From positions 1,815,001 to 1,879,000 of the forward strand of contig CP076354.1 of the NCBI GenBank assembly GCA_018798825.1: 64,000 nt of DNA, read 5' to 3'. The notes beneath the pieces were generated by a model. It saw only the letters and a list, made by a program, of their open reading frames with translations. It was not told the DNA's origin and made no database searches. Source of the DNA: Ochrobactrum sp. BTU1 (GTDB lineage Bacteria; Pseudomonadota; Alphaproteobacteria; Rhizobiales; Rhizobiaceae). Positions 10,586-61,510 of the stretch are shown in pieces; within the stretch, counting starts at the first letter, position 1, and each line of letters begins with the position of its first letter. The position numbers were made by a program, and so were the translations under genes.

Positions 10586-10604
10586 TTTATACAGGCGTAT
10601 TCGC

Positions 10605-10660
10605 AAGGACCCGGTGAAAGCCCGGGTGGCTCTTCTGGCCGCCTATCCGCCAGACAACGC
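10605..10660 (+). ncRNA. structured leader upstream of the SulP transporter (possible sul1-type motif)
   Basis: Two stem-loops follow the preceding terminator: ACCCGG/CCGGGT (10609-10614 with 10622-10627) and TCTGG/CCAGA (10634-10638 with 10650-10654). They lie about 85 bp before the SulP start. A conserved RNA called the sul1 motif is known upstream of SulP genes in Alphaproteobacteria; assignment to it is a guess from position and structure, not an alignment. Confidence 0.4.
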
Positions 10661-27174: not shown

Positions 27175-27747
27175 TCAGGCAAAACTTCTCAAAGTTACGC
27201 GAGAGGAATCGGCATCCGGACCATAATCGCCATCGCCTTCGATCTTCAAAATCTCTTGCAGACGCGTACGGGCGCGGCTCACACGGCTCTTGATTGTGCC
27301 AACAGCACATCCGCAGATCTCTGCCGCTTCCTCATAGGCAAAGCCCGATGCACCAATCAGAATAATGGCTTCGCGCTGGTCATCCGGCAACTGTTCAAGA
27401 GCTGCCTTGAAATCCTGCAGATCTAGCGTGCCATATTGGGAAGGATGCACTGCAAGCTGTTCGCTGAAGATACCATCCGTATCTTGCACTTCGCGACCAC
27501 GCTTACGCATCTGCGTGTAGAATTCATTGCGCAGAATTGTAAACAGCCAAGCCTTCATGTTGGTGCCCAACTCGAAAGAATCCTGCTTGGCCCAGGCTTT
27601 CATGATTGTGTCCTGAACGAGATCGTCGGCGCGGTCATGCTTACCGATCAACGATACTGCAAACGCGCGCAAGCTAGGCAAGGACGCGAGCAGTTCGCGC
27701 TTGAACTGCGCCAACTCCTCAGCCGACGGAACCAGTGTTCTGCTCAC
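27175..27747 (-). CDS. ecfG: general stress response sigma factor EcfG (RpoE1)
   Basis: 190 residues from GTG 27747, which follows AGGAGAG. Sigma region 2 (SLIGKHDRADDLVQDTIMKAW, NMKAWLFTILRNEFYTQMRK) and region 4 (LEQLPDDQREAIILIGASGFAYEEAAEICGCAVGTIKSRVSRAR) are complete. EcfG factors read GGAAC-N16/17-CGTT promoters and are held inactive by NepR until phosphorylated PhyR binds NepR. The gene overlaps nepR by 29 nt, which should couple their translation. An in-frame TTG at 27765 lacks a ribosome site. Confidence 0.92.
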   Translation of the reverse strand: MSRTLVPSAEELAQFKRELLASLPSLRAFAVSLIGKHDRADDLVQDTIMKAWAKQDSFELGTNMKAWLFTILRNEFYTQMRKRGREVQDTDGIFSEQLAVHPSQYGTLDLQDFKAALEQLPDDQREAIILIGASGFAYEEAAEICGCAVGTIKSRVSRARTRLQEILKIEGDGDYGPDADSSRVTLRSFA

Positions 27748-27946
27748 GCATACTCTCCTGTTCAACCTGATCGAGTTTTTCCAGCAAATCCAGAAAACGA
27801 TCCGGAATGGTCTCGTCCTGTATCGAAGTATAAAGCGCTTTTAGTTTGAGACCCACTTCGCAGTTCGGACCCAAAATGTCCTTCCGGACGCGCCCGTTAA
27901 GCCGTAACCCGGCCCCGTTCGCATGAAGGTTTTTCTTTTCAGTCAT
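27719..27946 (-). CDS. nepR: anti-sigma factor NepR
   Basis: 75 residues. The conserved NepR core is present: a hydrophobic segment LKLKALYTSIQDE, then IPDRFLDLLEKLDQVE. It binds EcfG and blocks it; the sigma-like domain of phosphorylated PhyR captures NepR and frees EcfG. The tail beyond the core is short. It is the first gene of nepR-ecfG, overlapping ecfG by 29 nt and divergent from phyR, the standard alphaproteobacterial arrangement. Minus-strand GGAAC boxes occur in the intergenic region, but without a perfect CGTT partner. Confidence 0.9.
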   Translation of the reverse strand: MTEKKNLHANGAGLRLNGRVRKDILGPNCEVGLKLKALYTSIQDETIPDRFLDLLEKLDQVEQESMREQNTGSVG

Positions 27947-28054: not shown

Positions 28055-28079
28055 GGAACTTTTTTAAATCCGTGGCGTT
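28055..28079 (+). promoter_or_regulatory. EcfG-type promoter of phyR
   Basis: Perfect GGAAC (28055-28059)-N16-CGTT (28076-28079), 105 bp before the phyR start. This implies positive feedback of EcfG on phyR. Confidence 0.75.
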
Positions 28080-28183
28080 TTGAGTACCATAATGCCGCGC
28101 TCTATAACATTCTCCAGAAACTTTCGGGTTTCAGCGGTGTATGTAGAAAAACAAGAATTGCGGCAGTGAGGAGTCTCAGAATC

Positions 28184-28978
28184 ATGACGTTATCGACGCG
28201 TATTGCGCCGCACCTTCCCTATCTTCGCCGTTTTTCGCGCGCCCTCACCGGGTCGCAGGCTTCGGGTGATGCATATGTAGCAGCCACATTGGAAGCCCTG
28301 ATCGCAGATATAAGCATTTTCCCGCAAGCCTCCGCGGACCGGATCGCGCTTTATCGACTTTTCTGCAATCTTTACAAAACGGCCTCTGTTCAAATTCCGG
28401 AACCCGCTTCCGAGTTTGCATGGGAAAAACAGGCAGCGCGCAATCTCTCACATATTGCCCCCTTGCCGCGACAGGCATTTCTCCTCGTCGCAGTCGAAGG
28501 TTTCAACGATCGTGAAGCAGCCGAAATTCTTGAACTCGAAGATGGTGAGTTCGGGCGAATTCTTGCAGCAGCTTCCACCGAAATCTCGAAGCAGGTTGCA
28601 ACCCGCATCATGATTATCGAAGACGAGCCGCTCATCGCCATGGATATCGAGCAGATGGTGGAGAGCCTCGGCCATGAGGTCGTGGGTATTGCACGCACCA
28701 AAGATGAAGCGCTTGAGCTTTATCGCAAAGAAAAGCCGCGCATGGTCCTCGCCGACATCCAGCTTGCCGATGGCAGTTCGGGTATCGATGCAGTCAACGA
28801 AATTTTGCAGGACGATACCGTTCCCGTGATCTTCATCACGGCCTTCCCCGAACGCCTCCTGACGGGAGAACGACCAGAGCCGACGTTCCTGGTGACGAAG
28901 CCATTTAACCCGGACATGGTCAAAGCGCTCATAAGCCAGGCTCTGTTCTTTGAGGAAGCTGCGCAGGTTGCTGCGTAA
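28184..28978 (+). CDS. phyR: response regulator PhyR (anti-anti-sigma factor)
   Basis: 264 residues from ATG 28184 with GAGGAG 9 nt upstream; a GTG at 28166 is in frame. The N-terminal sigma-like domain (about 1-135) mimics EcfG regions 2 and 4 and binds NepR. The C-terminal receiver (about 140-262) has acidic pocket Glu146-Asp147, phospho-acceptor Asp191 (MVLADIQL), Thr219 and Lys239 (FLVTKPF). Divergent from nepR-ecfG and preceded by a perfect EcfG promoter. It is the hub of the general stress response. Confidence 0.93.
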   Translation: MTLSTRIAPHLPYLRRFSRALTGSQASGDAYVAATLEALIADISIFPQASADRIALYRLFCNLYKTASVQIPEPASEFAWEKQAARNLSHIAPLPRQAFLLVAVEGFNDREAAEILELEDGEFGRILAAASTEISKQVATRIMIIEDEPLIAMDIEQMVESLGHEVVGIARTKDEALELYRKEKPRMVLADIQLADGSSGIDAVNEILQDDTVPVIFITAFPERLLTGERPEPTFLVTKPFNPDMVKALISQALFFEEAAQVAA

Positions 28979-29184: not shown

Positions 29185-29210
29185 GGAACCAAAAGCATAG
29201 ATCGAACGTT
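29185..29210 (+). promoter_or_regulatory. EcfG-type promoter of the DUF1328 gene
   Basis: Perfect GGAAC (29185-29189)-N17-CGTT (29207-29210), 31 bp before the start codon, so the leader is only about 24 nt. Confidence 0.78.
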
Positions 29211-29512: not shown

Positions 29513-29655
29513 TCATAACAAATCAAAACCTTTGAGTCCTATGACAGTCAGCATCCATCCAAACACAATGCCGAGTGTCGTTCATTTTTCCAGTACCAGC
29601 TTTTATAAATCACCAGTCAATTTTGATTCTAAAACGGGCGGCAGTTGAGGCATTC

Positions 29656-30663
29656 ATGGCAGCATCACACCAATCCCTCAAAGACACAGAGCCCGATGCT
29701 TCACGTTTGCGCGCACTGCTGAGAGCTGTCCGTAACAGCAATGTTTGCGTTCTGTATCAGACGCCCGACCTTTTCTATGCCTGGGGTGAAAATATTCCAT
29801 CCTACTGGCAGGAAAAATGGAGAGTTGGCGGTCAGGATTGCGATTTCATTTTCTCAACCTCCATGTCCCGGCTCGATCACGCCAAACGCACAGCGTTGGA
29901 AAGTGGAACCGCACAGAATGTCGAGCTCGCCATCAACGACGGCGACAAGCTGCGCTGGATAGAATTTCACATCGACTGCGATCGTGATTCTGAGGGCAAT
30001 GTGCTCGGTCTTGTTACGACCGCACTTGAGATCAGCGAAATGAAACGCCGTGAGCAGGTGTTAAAAACACTGCTCCGCGAAGTCAGTCACCGCTCCAAGA
30101 ATCTGCTCGCCATCGTGCAAAGCATTGCGAGCCAGACCGCTCGCTTCACCGATTCTGTTGATGATTTCCTTCTCAAGTTTCGCGGCCGCATACAGTCCCT
30201 CTCCTATTCACAGGACCTGGTGACGGATTCCAATTGGCACGGAGCGTTGTTTCTCGACCTCGTTCATTCGCAGATCGAGAAATATATCGACATCAATGAT
30301 GACCGCCTGACTGTCGAAAGTGATAATCCCTATCTCTTCCCGGGCGCGGCTTTGCATGTCGGCTTGGCGCTGCATGAACTGATTATCAATGCGACCTCTT
30401 TTGGCGGCCTCTCTATCCCTTACGGTCGCGTGGTGATTTCTGCAAAAATCCACCGCTCCGAAAAAGGCGATGAAGAACTCGTCATCCATTGGGAAGAAAC
30501 CAATCCGGCCATGCCAGAGGTTTATAATCATGACCCGCGCTTTGGCAGTGCAGTCCTGCAACGGATCGTGCCAGCAGCAGTCGGCGGCAAGGCAGATTAC
30601 CGCGTTGATGGCGCAGGTGCCGTCTATTCCCTGACAGTGCCGGCCGAACAGTTCGATTCCTGA
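29656..30663 (+). CDS. cytosolic HWE-type sensor histidine kinase with N-terminal PAS-like domain
   Basis: 335 residues from ATG 29656 with TTGAGG upstream. A PAS-like region (about 20-130, ending LGLVTTALEISEMKRRE) leads to the phospho-acceptor His145 (LREVSHRSKNLLAIVQSIASQTAR). The HWE marks follow: His240 in LALHELIINATSFGGLS and Trp279-Glu280 in VIHWEETN. There is no membrane segment. The N-box region is less conserved than usual (INATSFGGLS rather than the common NAAKYGALS), so activity may be modified. Its place beside phyR suggests it feeds the general stress response. Confidence 0.83.
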   Translation: MAASHQSLKDTEPDASRLRALLRAVRNSNVCVLYQTPDLFYAWGENIPSYWQEKWRVGGQDCDFIFSTSMSRLDHAKRTALESGTAQNVELAINDGDKLRWIEFHIDCDRDSEGNVLGLVTTALEISEMKRREQVLKTLLREVSHRSKNLLAIVQSIASQTARFTDSVDDFLLKFRGRIQSLSYSQDLVTDSNWHGALFLDLVHSQIEKYIDINDDRLTVESDNPYLFPGAALHVGLALHELIINATSFGGLSIPYGRVVISAKIHRSEKGDEELVIHWEETNPAMPEVYNHDPRFGSAVLQRIVPAAVGGKADYRVDGAGAVYSLTVPAEQFDS

Positions 30664-30787: not shown

Positions 30788-30824
30788 GCATTAACGCGCC
30801 TACCGGAAAGGGTTAAACGCGCTC

Positions 30825-30927
30825 TACGGCATAATTCCTTAAACTTGCATCAGTTTAAGGAATTATGCCGTAAATATAGAGTGTTAGAGCGACCTTTATG
30901 CACCCAAGAGGGCGCATGGCGCTCTAA
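30825..30927. repeat. 103 bp palindromic repeat, family D (Bru-RS-like)
   Basis: First hairpin pairs GGCATAATTCCTTAAACT with AGTTTAAGGAATTATGCC exactly (18 bp). The second pairs AGAGCGACC with the GGCGCTCT end around ATGCACCC/GGGCGCAT. The left end of the gap 30664-31132 holds this repeat and the kinase terminator; the right end holds the small RNA gene. Confidence 0.9.
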
Positions 30928-30935
30928 AGCTGGAT

Positions 30936-31100
30936 AAAAGAAAAGCCGTTATGGTCCTCACCACAACGGCTTTTCTTTGAATATGCGGAACGCCAGCTGC
31001 ATAAACGGGGGCGTCTGCGCGGCATTCTCGCTGCCCACTTCATACGGGGAGATTGAAGCGGGCGATGAAGACCACTTGCGGGGCGGGTTGTGGTCTTCAT
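30936..31100 (-). ncRNA. EcfG-dependent small RNA candidate (GsrN-like)
   Basis: About 165 nt on the minus strand. A perfect EcfG promoter (31131-31107) predicts a 5' end near 31100. The transcript would begin with an 11 bp hairpin (ATGAAGACCAC at 31100-31090 with GTGGTCTTCAT at 31075-31065) and a 14 nt loop containing CCCGCCCCGC. A second small hairpin (31058-31038) exposes CTCCCCG, and an unpaired CCCCC lies at 31011-31007. A terminator stem follows at 30974-30941. No open frame with a ribosome site is evident. In Caulobacter the sigma-T-dependent RNA GsrN has a 5' hairpin with a C-rich loop that binds target mRNAs; this looks like the Brucellaceae counterpart, but homology is inferred from form and control only. 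Confidence 0.65.
30941..30974. terminator. terminator of the small RNA (bidirectional)
   Basis: Stem AAAAGCCGTT/AACGGCTTTT (30941-30950 with 30965-30974). On the minus strand it is followed by CTTTTAT, and on the plus strand by CTTTG. Confidence 0.82.
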
Positions 31101-31106
31101 ATGCAA

Positions 31107-31131
31107 AACGCCGATGAGCGATTTTAGTTCC
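31107..31131 (-). promoter_or_regulatory. EcfG-type promoter of the small RNA
   Basis: On the minus strand GGAAC (31131-31127)-N16-CGTT (31110-31107), a perfect consensus match lying directly after the mur stop codon. No protein gene lies downstream before the terminator at 30974. Confidence 0.75.
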
Positions 31132-31132
31132 G

Positions 31133-31558
31133 TTAGGATTTTATTTTTTTACAATAAAGTTCGAGACGGTGATGAACGATCTCATAACCGAGCGTGCGGG
31201 CGATCTCTTCCTGCAGTTTTTCGATCTTGTCGGAGCGAAATTCGACGACCTCGCCACTGTCCATATCGATGATATGGTCATGATGGGCGCCACTCGCCTG
31301 TTCAAAGCGCGACGGCCCGCCAGCAAAAGCATGACGATGAATTGCGCCGCGCTCTTCCAGCAGCTTCATTGTCCGATAGACAGTCGAAAGCGAAATGCTG
31401 GTATCGATCTCGACCGCGCGCCGAAAAATCTCAAGCGCATCCGGATGGTCTTCCGTTTCGGTCAAAATATTGAGAATGATGCGGCGTGGCCGTGTAATTC
31501 GGACCCCAGCCTGCCGCAGCTCATACTCATAATCGGGTTTTTTGTGCGATTCACTCAT
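31133..31558 (-). CDS. mur: Fur-family regulator, probable Mur (manganese uptake regulator)
   Basis: 141 residues from ATG 31558. The winged helix ([56 protein letters not shown]) and the metal-binding His-rich HHDH motif (92-95) are intact. The CxxC structural zinc motifs of many Fur proteins are absent; only Cys136 is present. This fits the Mur branch of Rhizobiales, which answers to manganese. In Brucella the mur gene lies beside the phyR/ecfG locus, as here. A 26 bp palindrome 25 bp upstream suggests autoregulation. Confidence 0.82.
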
Positions 31559-31582
31559 AGCGCGATTATGCACCTCCCGAGC

Positions 31583-31608
31583 GCCAGTTGCAAATTTTCG
31601 CAACTGGC
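31583..31608. promoter_or_regulatory. 26 bp palindrome upstream of mur
   Basis: GCCAGTTGC (31583-31591), 8 bp centre, GCAACTGGC (31600-31608). The inner TTGCAAATTTTCGCAA resembles Fur/Mur/Zur-type operators of alphaproteobacteria. It lies 25 bp before the start codon and is likely an autoregulatory site. Confidence 0.55.
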
Positions 31609-31672
31609 ATTGGAACATCTCCCCAGACCATTTATCGCTCACGCCTGCTGAGGAACCCTTTTCATCGTGTAA

Positions 31673-43368: not shown

Positions 43369-43376
43369 TTTGTTTC

Positions 43377-43416
43377 CTATCCTCTCAGATAGCACGCGCC
43401 TCGTTGGGGAGGCGTG
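43377..43416 (-). ncRNA. serC leader, two hairpins (serC-motif-like)
   Basis: On the minus strand a hairpin pairs CACGCCTC with GAGGCGCGTG (43416-43393). It is followed at once by CTATC-tgagag-GATAG (43392-43377), whose loop and 3' arm carry purine-rich sequence 9 nt before the serC ATG. A serC RNA motif is known upstream of serC in alphaproteobacteria. Its position and compact shape agree, but no alignment was made. Confidence 0.55.
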
Positions 43417-43477
43417 GCCCGCTGATGAAAATATCGGAAAGCAAAAATTTCACAAGACCGTCCAAGGCTTATTTTTT

Positions 43478-61361: not shown

Positions 61362-61510
61362 AAAAAAAGAGCCGCAAAGGCGGCTCTCAGGAGTTTAACA
61401 GGGAGGCGTCAAACAGAGTGGCTAAACCACTCGGTAAGAATCCAGCCGAACTGGATGTAAACCATTTAACGCCGTTAAGATTAATGAAGCGTTAATTTTG
61501 GGCTCAAGCT
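61362..61510 (-). ncRNA. possible small RNA ending at an orphan terminator
   Basis: A minus-strand intrinsic terminator AGAGCCG/CGGCTCT followed by TTTTTTTA (61387-61362) lies 160-180 bp beyond the opgC terminator with no open frame between. Just upstream are C-rich stretches (CCTCCC, CTCCTGAG) able to pair with ribosome sites. The 5' end is unknown; the alternative is a second, back-up terminator for opgC. Confidence 0.3.

What the first reader, a model, noticed from the sequence alone, without database searches (positions are those of the whole stretch)
30936..31131. EcfG-driven small RNA gene next to the general stress locus, shaped like GsrN
Seen: on the minus strand a perfect GGAAC-N16-CGTT sits right after the mur stop. 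About 7 nt downstream begins an 11 bp hairpin with a 14 nt C-rich loop, then a second hairpin exposing CTCCCCG, a CCCCC run, and an intrinsic terminator; there is no protein gene. Known: Caulobacter GsrN is a sigma-T-dependent sRNA whose C-rich 5' loop binds katG and other leaders. Inference: this is the Brucellaceae counterpart, giving the stress response a post-transcriptional arm encoded within its own locus.
Basis: partly seen in the sequence, partly recalled or inferred. Interest (0 to 1): 0.88.

Follow-up and report, generated by a model that had tools for sequence, protein, structure and literature searches.

The report
Stress-induced small RNA, twin C-rich loops
Next to the master genes of the general stress response, this soil-type Brucella/Ochrobactrum genome carries a well-conserved small RNA gene with a stress promoter and two C-rich loops; it is very likely real and is a new, better-documented member of a kind of RNA already predicted or seen in related bacteria, rather than a new kind.

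Summary
At 31131-30937 (-) an exact EcfG-type box (GGAAC-N16-CGTT) starts 1 nt after the fur/mur stop and is followed by four stem-loops; the first two expose AACCCGCCCCGCAA and CUCCCCG (fold z -9.5). The stems covary (16 of 43 pairs change on both sides; 0 of 500 shuffles) while the CCCC of both loops never varies in 20 sequences. The RNA is in 31 of 35 genomes of the genus. Outside it the sequence fades, but the plan persists: a box plus tandem C-loop hairpins in 14 of 40 PhyR loci of the family, 11 of them pointing at the 3' end of the PhyR-side kinase gene.

The kind is known: Tien 2018 predicted a Brucella abortus GsrN near this locus, R. etli ReC64 is an EcfG-dependent RNA downstream of the kinase gene beside phyR, and Bsr6 of B. 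abortus needs RpoE1 (= EcfG). Whether Bsr6 or Bmsr1 is this RNA I could not settle. The katG idea fails: this genome has no katG. The third C run is not conserved (7 of 20). Most likely it is a C-loop, base-pairing stress RNA with unknown targets.

The parts
31107..31131 (-). EcfG-type promoter box GGAAC-N16-CGTT (-35/-10)
   Evidence: box columns 100% identical while spacer columns average 55% (the 20 rows had been picked by a box pattern); exact box upstream of 30 of 30 CM hits, of which 23 repeat a row used to build the model and 7 do not
30937..31101 (-). predicted small RNA, about 165 nt (start inferred from the usual box-to-start distance; end at the terminator)
   Evidence: fold z -9.5; 98.6% of pair cells kept over 20 sequences, 16 pairs with changes on both sides, 0/500 shuffles; 31 of 35 genomes of the genus
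31065..31100 (-). stem-loop 1, 11 bp, 14-nt loop AACCCGCCCCGCAA
   Evidence: 6 of 9 pairs with changes on both sides; loop CCCC invariant in 20 of 20
31033..31063 (-). stem-loop 2, 10 bp, loop with CUCCCCG
   Evidence: 6 of 8 pairs with changes on both sides; loop CCCC invariant in 20 of 20
30985..31031 (-). stem-loop 3, long stem whose 5' arm begins GCGAGAAUGCCGCGC (7 of 14 pairs never vary); the CCCCC in its loop region is not conserved
   Evidence: CCCCC in 7 of 20
30937..30978 (-). stem-loop 4, intrinsic terminator
   Evidence: 99.6% paired; not flagged by the simple scan
31133..31642 (-).
   Evidence: PF01475 E 4e-40; stop codon 1 nt before the box
29575..30663 (+). HWE-family sensor kinase gene (HK2), convergent with the RNA
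   Evidence: PF07536; an HK2-like gene is the usual neighbour of the RNA in other genera
28166..28978 (+). phyR, with an EcfG box at 28055-28079
   Evidence: NF006623 above its cut-off; box
27175..27765 (-). ecfG, the general stress sigma factor gene
   Evidence: NF009169 above its cut-off (named only 'RNA polymerase sigma factor'); identification as EcfG from the phyR neighbourhood

Best explanation
This is a stand-alone small RNA gene of the general stress regulon. When PhyR frees EcfG from its anti-sigma factor, EcfG transcribes an RNA of about 165 nt from about 31101 to a terminator at 30937. Two hairpins at its 5' end hold C-rich loops open; these pair with G-rich stretches, chiefly ribosome-binding sites, of several target mRNAs and change their translation or stability, probably with Hfq. 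It thus works like Caulobacter GsrN and sits where R. etli ReC64 sits, but it is a separate, fast-evolving lineage with two C-loops and with targets other than katG. Shown here: box, structure, covariation, conservation, place, absence of katG. Inferred: EcfG dependence in this organism, start site, Hfq, pairing and targets.
For: Structure and covariation: stems change with compensation, loop C runs do not, as expected of loops that pair with something. The RNA is in 31 of 35 genomes of the genus by DNA search and by model R1; in the 30 whose loci I held the exact box is upstream in all, but 23 of these repeat rows that built R1 and had been picked by a box pattern, so the independent count is 7 of 7. 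The 31st (Falsochrobactrum ovis, L059) has CATT for CGTT. Built without them, R1 also hits the six Pseudochrobactrum-type loci at the same spot, weakly (E 1e-4 to 0.5). Box-blind test: in 80 PhyR-anchored loci, 16 of 29 tandem C-loop hairpins have a box (at most 1 mismatch) within 95 nt upstream, against 2.9% of background windows, 0 of 29 for the reversed box and 0 of 9 tandem G-loop hairpins. Literature: ReC64 is EcfG1-dependent, start mapped, activated by EcfG in E. coli, downstream of kinase gene tcrY (PMC3892343, passages); a B. abortus GsrN was predicted from expression data (PMC5869019, section 14); Bsr6 needs RpoE1 and has its box (PMC12772402, section 4 part 1).
Against: No transcript data for this organism. 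No target found: exact 11-nt complements of either loop occur nowhere else in the genome; leaders of five GSR-locus genes (starts approximate) do not pair with loop 1 better than shuffles in 23 relatives (median ranks 0.31-0.93). No katG. In four of 35 named loci with the neighbourhood the RNA is missing, and tandem C-loop RNAs with a box were not detected in 26 of 40 family loci, so it is dispensable or moves. A published deletion of Bsr6, if that is this RNA, had no mouse phenotype.
Confidence: 0.72

Rival explanations
1. It is GsrN in the strict sense: an orthologue of the Caulobacter RNA by descent, with the same leading role in peroxide survival through a catalase-peroxidase mRNA.
For: Same promoter class, C-rich 5' loop, nearness to the GSR locus; Tien 2018 lists B. 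abortus among predicted homologues.
Against: No katG in this genome. Tien's BLASTn hits stopped at Caulobacteraceae. In 397 order genomes R1 gave, besides the window's own, only 21 weak places in 20 genomes, none with a box immediately upstream (that search used stricter filters that lose weak matches). Of two monofunctional catalases, the leaders give no convincing loop pairing: the best match lies at that gene's own EcfG-like box.
Confidence: 0.12
2. It is a 3'-UTR or terminator region of the fur-family gene: the hairpins end or stabilise that mRNA and the box is chance.
For: The box starts 1 nt after the stop codon, so the RNA could also be cut from the upstream mRNA.
Against: Box kept while its spacer drifts; in Phyllobacterium leguminum and B. 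endophytica box and RNA stand about 0.8 kb from the fur-family gene, beside the kinase gene, and in other family members beside the kinase with no fur-family gene found in the stretch.
Confidence: 0.06
3. A short leaderless protein (58 codons from the ATG at 31100).
For: The ATG lies at the expected start; some relatives keep about 29 similar residues.
Against: 3 of 23 lack an ATG in the first 20 nt and indels shift the frame among the others; the ATG is part of a conserved stem.
Confidence: 0.03
4. The RNA acts mainly in cis, by convergent transcription on the kinase gene HK2, damping its own inducer.
For: 11 of 14 tandem C-loop RNAs of the family loci point at the 3' end of an HK2-like gene, two more at phyR.
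Against: The terminator ends about 270 nt short of the HK2 stop; conserved C-loops are not needed for antisense action; leader pairing of loop 1 to HK2 is no better than chance.
Confidence: 0.07

Closest known systems
ReC64 of Rhizobium etli
   Same: EcfG1-dependent non-coding RNA with EcfG box and mapped start, downstream of the kinase gene tcrY in the ecfG1-phyR region (PMC3892343, passages; Northern in PMC2881028, passages)
   Different: 88 nt against about 165 nt predicted here; its sequence and its orientation to tcrY were not seen, so no sequence or structure comparison
GsrN of Caulobacter crescentus and predicted GsrN of Brucella abortus
   Same: EcfG/sigma-T promoter, C-rich 5' loop, GSR locus neighbourhood in most predicted cases (PMC5869019, section 14)
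   Different: BLASTn likeness limited to Caulobacteraceae (same section); two conserved C-loops here; no katG target in this genome; I could not see Figure 9A to confirm that the B. abortus prediction is this very interval
Bsr6 of Brucella abortus
   Same: requires RpoE1 (EcfG), with its box in the promoter (PMC12772402, section 4 part 1)
   Different: coordinates are in a supplement and on a web site I could not open; identity open; deletion had no mouse phenotype
Bmsr1 of Brucella melitensis M28
   Same: flank pattern -> -> <- fits fur-family gene, RNA, kinase (Table 1 of PMC9751625); the flank tags BME_RS01840-01835 are roughly where the GSR locus would fall if BMEI0371 is rpoE1 (recalled) and tags scale evenly
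   Different: 121 nt; identity not established
AbcR1/AbcR2 of Brucella
   Same: C-rich seed (CUCCCA, PMC9751625 section 6 part 1) like loop 2 (CUCCCCG)
   Different: other flanking genes (same table) and other regulators; no Rfam family matches the interval here

Membership tests
GsrN (Tien 2018) | direct EcfG/sigma-T promoter | tested here: met
   exact box in the window and in relatives; sequence only, not expression
GsrN (Tien 2018) | exposed C-rich 5' loop, highly conserved | tested here: met
   CCCC of loops 1 and 2 invariant in 20 of 20; stems covary
GsrN (Tien 2018) | near ecfG/nepR/phyR | tested here: met
   phyR 2 kb, ecfG 3 kb away; nepR not sought
GsrN (Tien 2018) | sequence homology to Caulobacter gsrN | not tested
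   no Caulobacter gsrN sequence at hand; model R1 finds nothing credible among 396 other order genomes
GsrN (Tien 2018) | pairs with the katG leader and raises KatG | tested here: not met
   no katG-type peroxidase in the genome, control positive in Caulobacter vibrioides
GsrN (Tien 2018) | cleaved to a stable 5' form; Hfq affects full length | not testable with these tools
   needs RNA work
ReC64-type RNA | EcfG box and place just downstream of the PhyR-side kinase gene | tested here: met
   window; family survey
ReC64-type RNA | sequence or structure homology | not tested
   ReC64 sequence not available here
Any Rfam family | covariance match above gathering score | tested here: not met
   four matches in the window, none here

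The most novel reading that the evidence does not exclude
The general stress response of the Rhizobiaceae-Brucellaceae carries a positionally fixed but fast-evolving class of twin (sometimes triple) C-loop RNAs, driven by EcfG and pointed at the PhyR-side kinase gene; each loop serves its own set of G-rich mRNA sites, and the katG circuit of Caulobacter is only one lineage's use of it.
Probability: 0.4. Interest if true: 0.6.

Novelty: new member of a known kind. Interest (0 to 1): 0.46.

Why it matters
It turns a prediction made for one Brucella species into a defined RNA with anatomy, covariation and a species range, and shows that the same design (EcfG box, tandem C-loop hairpins, same place) recurs in part of the family after sequence likeness is gone. 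That makes it testable whether alphaproteobacterial general stress responses share a post-transcriptional arm that does not rest on katG, and gives a search rule (position plus design) that sequence search lacks.

Tried and rejected
katG as target: rejected, gene absent. Catalase leaders (the first try, read the wrong strand and is void): of 14 tests the best is loop 2 with one catalase gene (2 of 300 shuffles as good), but that G-tract is part of an EcfG-like box GGAAC-N16-AGTT and so probably outside the mRNA; loop 1 with the other catalase gene reached 14 of 300 at one possible start. Exact loop complements in the genome: only the gene itself. GSR-locus leaders as targets: no signal for loop 1 (loop 2 not tried there). 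Protein from the ATG in stem 1: rejected. Homologues in the order by model R1: 21 places in 20 other genomes at E <= 0.01, none with a box immediately upstream, taken as chance. Same-strand boxes downstream of HK2 in other genera: in 5 of 9 such loci they precede a similar short reading frame, and no C-loop RNA. Two small-genome loci of the family (L194, L197): no such RNA seen. My automatic detector misses members: of the 23 RNAs known, one search scored 6 not at all and 1 only at its second hairpin, so 14 of 40 is probably a lower bound. Model R1 does not find the C-loop RNAs of L063 and L072 at E <= 1. Bsr6 and Bmsr1 identity: left open.

Full report
What was claimed and what is there. All of these are in the sequence at the stated place. 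The box GGAAC-N16-CGTT is at 31131-31107, 1 nt after the stop codon; stem-loop 1 is at 31100-31065, stem-loop 2 at 31063-31033, stem-loop 3 at 31031-30985 and the terminator hairpin at 30978-30937. The 178-nt segment folds at -84.5 kcal/mol against -45.8 (sd 4.1) for shuffles (z -9.5). No Rfam family matches here.

Surroundings. The neighbours are a Fur-family regulator (PF01475), an HWE sensor kinase (HK2, PF07536), a DUF1328 gene, phyR (NF006623 above cut-off), the ECF sigma gene (NF009169 above cut-off) and a second kinase with a CHASE3 domain. Exact boxes also stand before phyR (28055) and before DUF1328 (29185). The pattern is not enriched over the whole genome (92 matches, 173 for the reversed pattern), so a box alone proves little; three within 3.1 kb and the comparative evidence below carry the case. 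The closest named genome is Brucella (Ochrobactrum) pseudogrignonensis: its fur-family protein is 100% identical over the 143 residues searched.

Conservation inside the genus. By DNA similarity the gene is in 31 of 35 same-genus genomes (own included) and 0 of 25 others. An alignment of 20 named sequences (A1) gives four helices with 43 pairs: 98.6% of cells pair, 16 pairs have changes on both sides, and no shuffle of 500 reaches any of the five measures. Slid controls fall to 30-51% paired. The CCCC in loops 1 and 2 is invariant in 20 of 20, whereas the promoter spacer and the stretch before stem 1 average 55-57% identity. The CCCCC of loop 3 is in 7 of 20 only. These rows had been picked with a box pattern, so the box cannot be judged on them alone. 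Model R1 was built on hairpins 1 and 2 without the promoter (A2, 23 sequences). R1 finds 31 of 35 same-genus genomes at E <= 3.2e-17, one strong hit each; two of them have an extra weak hit (E 0.007 and 0.009). In the 30 of these 31 whose loci I held, the exact box lies immediately upstream in all 30. But 23 of the 30 have the same sequence as a row that built R1; the 7 that differ from all rows also carry the exact box. The 31st, the same place as L059 (Falsochrobactrum ovis), reads CATT instead of CGTT.

Neighbouring genera with names. Of 35 named loci that hold this neighbourhood (34 with a phyR hit plus the short contig L092), 31 carry the RNA by my reading: 23 with clear homology, six Pseudochrobactrum-type loci with two C-rich hairpins at the same spot, and Phyllobacterium leguminum (L063) and B. 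endophytica (L072), where it stands beside HK2 and not beside the fur-family gene, with an exact box. It is missing in B. gallinifaecis (L048), one MAG (L051) and two Paenochrobactrum loci (L071, L074). R1, built without them, puts hits on all six Pseudochrobactrum-type loci at that spot, weakly (E 1e-4 to 0.47, among chance hits of E 0.05-1 elsewhere in the 58 sources searched); it does not find the RNAs of L063 and L072. In the six the box reads GAAAC in place of GGAAC; the five long loci each hold three or four GGAAC boxes elsewhere, and two of them also one or two further GAAAC matches.

Beyond sequence likeness. In 397 genomes of the order, R1 gives, besides the window's own hit, 21 places in 20 genomes at E <= 0.01, none with a box immediately upstream (stricter filters, weak matches may be lost). 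I then fetched phyR-anchored loci: 40 from the family, one per genome and genus, and 40 from other families of the order, chosen by hand from 73 and 67 genomes with phyR hits (own included in each). A fixed detector (two hairpins with CCCC in the loop, 20-75 nt apart) gave 29 sites in the 80 loci; 16 have a box with at most one mismatch within 95 nt upstream, 10 of them exact, against 704 of 24526 background windows (2.9%) and 0 of 29 for the reversed box; the same detector for GGGG loops gave 9 sites, 0 with a box and 1 with the reversed box. Fourteen of the 16 are in the 40 family loci, two in the 40 others. Of the 14, 11 point at the 3' end of an HK2-like gene (best tblastn hit beside phyR, 39-54% identical), two (L168, L175) at the 3' end of phyR where no HK2-like gene is next to it, and one (L201) lies elsewhere. 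Two more family loci show C-loop RNAs at the HK2 position by eye (L174 with an exact box; L177 with a weaker box). In the 700 nt downstream of the HK2 hit, 12 of 32 loci have two separate C-loop hairpins on the convergent strand; on the other strand none, if the overlapping double count in L196 is taken as one, and 7 with a single one. Four loci have a third C-loop (L169, L170, L171, L190). So position and design last longer than sequence, in part of the family. The detector misses known members, so these counts are probably lower bounds; hairpins were called on single-sequence folds of short stretches, which is a limit.

How it most likely works. Loops that keep their C runs while stems change with compensation point to intermolecular pairing. 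Loop 2 (CUCCCCG) is complementary to Shine-Dalgarno-like GGGGAG; loop 1 (CCCGCCCCG) to G-rich stretches. In Caulobacter, GsrN is thought to use six C in its 5' loop to pair with G-tracts, among them the katG leader (PMC5869019: abstract, passages and section 14 seen). Here that target does not exist: no PF00141 protein in the genome, while the control search rings in Caulobacter. There are two monofunctional catalases; I found no sound pairing with their leaders, and one has an EcfG-like box of its own, so the sigma factor may act on it directly. No target can be named. EcfG dependence, Hfq and target pairing are inference.

What is already known. Tien et al. 2018 predicted GsrN homologues in R. 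etli, S. meliloti and B. abortus from general-stress-dependent expression, an EcfG box and nearness to the locus, and others by weaker criteria (section 14; Figure 9 itself not held). Jans et al. 2013 showed that R. etli ReC64, downstream of tcrY beside phyR, is EcfG1-dependent, with mapped start and activation by EcfG in E. coli (PMC3892343, passages); ReC64 also rises on salt shock (PMC4167512, passages). Caudill et al. 2025 showed by Northern blot that Bsr6 of B. abortus needs RpoE1 and has its box, and that its deletion did not alter mouse colonisation (PMC12772402, section 4 part 1). Bmsr1 of B. melitensis has fitting flank orientation (PMC9751625, Table 1), and the review reports reduced virulence on its deletion; if Bmsr1 and Bsr6 were the same RNA these reports would disagree, one more reason to leave identity open. 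Searches for GsrN, Bsr6, Bmsr1, ReC64, EcfG with Brucella small RNA, RpoE2 small RNAs and locus tags were made in an open-licence library; in the parts I read I saw no description of the twin C-loop design, while a place downstream of the kinase gene is in print for ReC64. Most listed papers I did not open, and most subscription papers are not in the library.

Verdict. The finding is real and well seen. It is a new member, with good comparative support, of a known kind: EcfG-driven C-loop RNAs of the general stress locus. It works like GsrN in design, but it should not be filed as GsrN proper, because the target that defines GsrN's best-known function is absent here and sequence homology is not shown.

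Noticed in passing
window 30815-30935: A dispersed palindromic repeat of about 100 bp lies between the RNA's terminator and the kinase gene; 43 matches in the genome, some of them the two arms of one palindrome.
   Followed up: partly
window 29185-29210: An EcfG-type box (spacer 17) stands before a small DUF1328 protein gene in the same locus.
   Followed up: no
window 61362-61504 (-): Rfam match to BjrC1505, another alphaproteobacterial small RNA.
   Followed up: no
window 10604-10659 and 43372-43424: Rfam matches to the sul1 RNA and the serC leader.
   Followed up: no
L247, upstream of the catalase gene: One of the two catalase genes has an EcfG-like box with one mismatch, GGAAC-N16-AGTT, about 55-60 nt before one possible ATG start (read).
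   Followed up: partly
L087, L090, L092, L093, L095, L096: In Pseudochrobactrum-type genomes the RNA's box reads GAAAC in all six loci, while the five long loci each hold three or four GGAAC boxes elsewhere, as if this promoter were tuned or changed.
   Followed up: partly
L176, L183, L192, L193, L204: In these loci without a convergent C-loop RNA with box, a small reading frame (MEHIAA or MEHVAA, read by eye) preceded by an EcfG-like box on the same strand lies downstream of the HK2-like gene.
   Followed up: no
L169, L170, L171, L190: These loci show three successive C-loop hairpins instead of two.
   Followed up: no
L087: Record titled Bacillus subtilis SK6B4, but the contig looks Pseudochrobactrum-like, so mislabelled or contaminated.
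   Followed up: no
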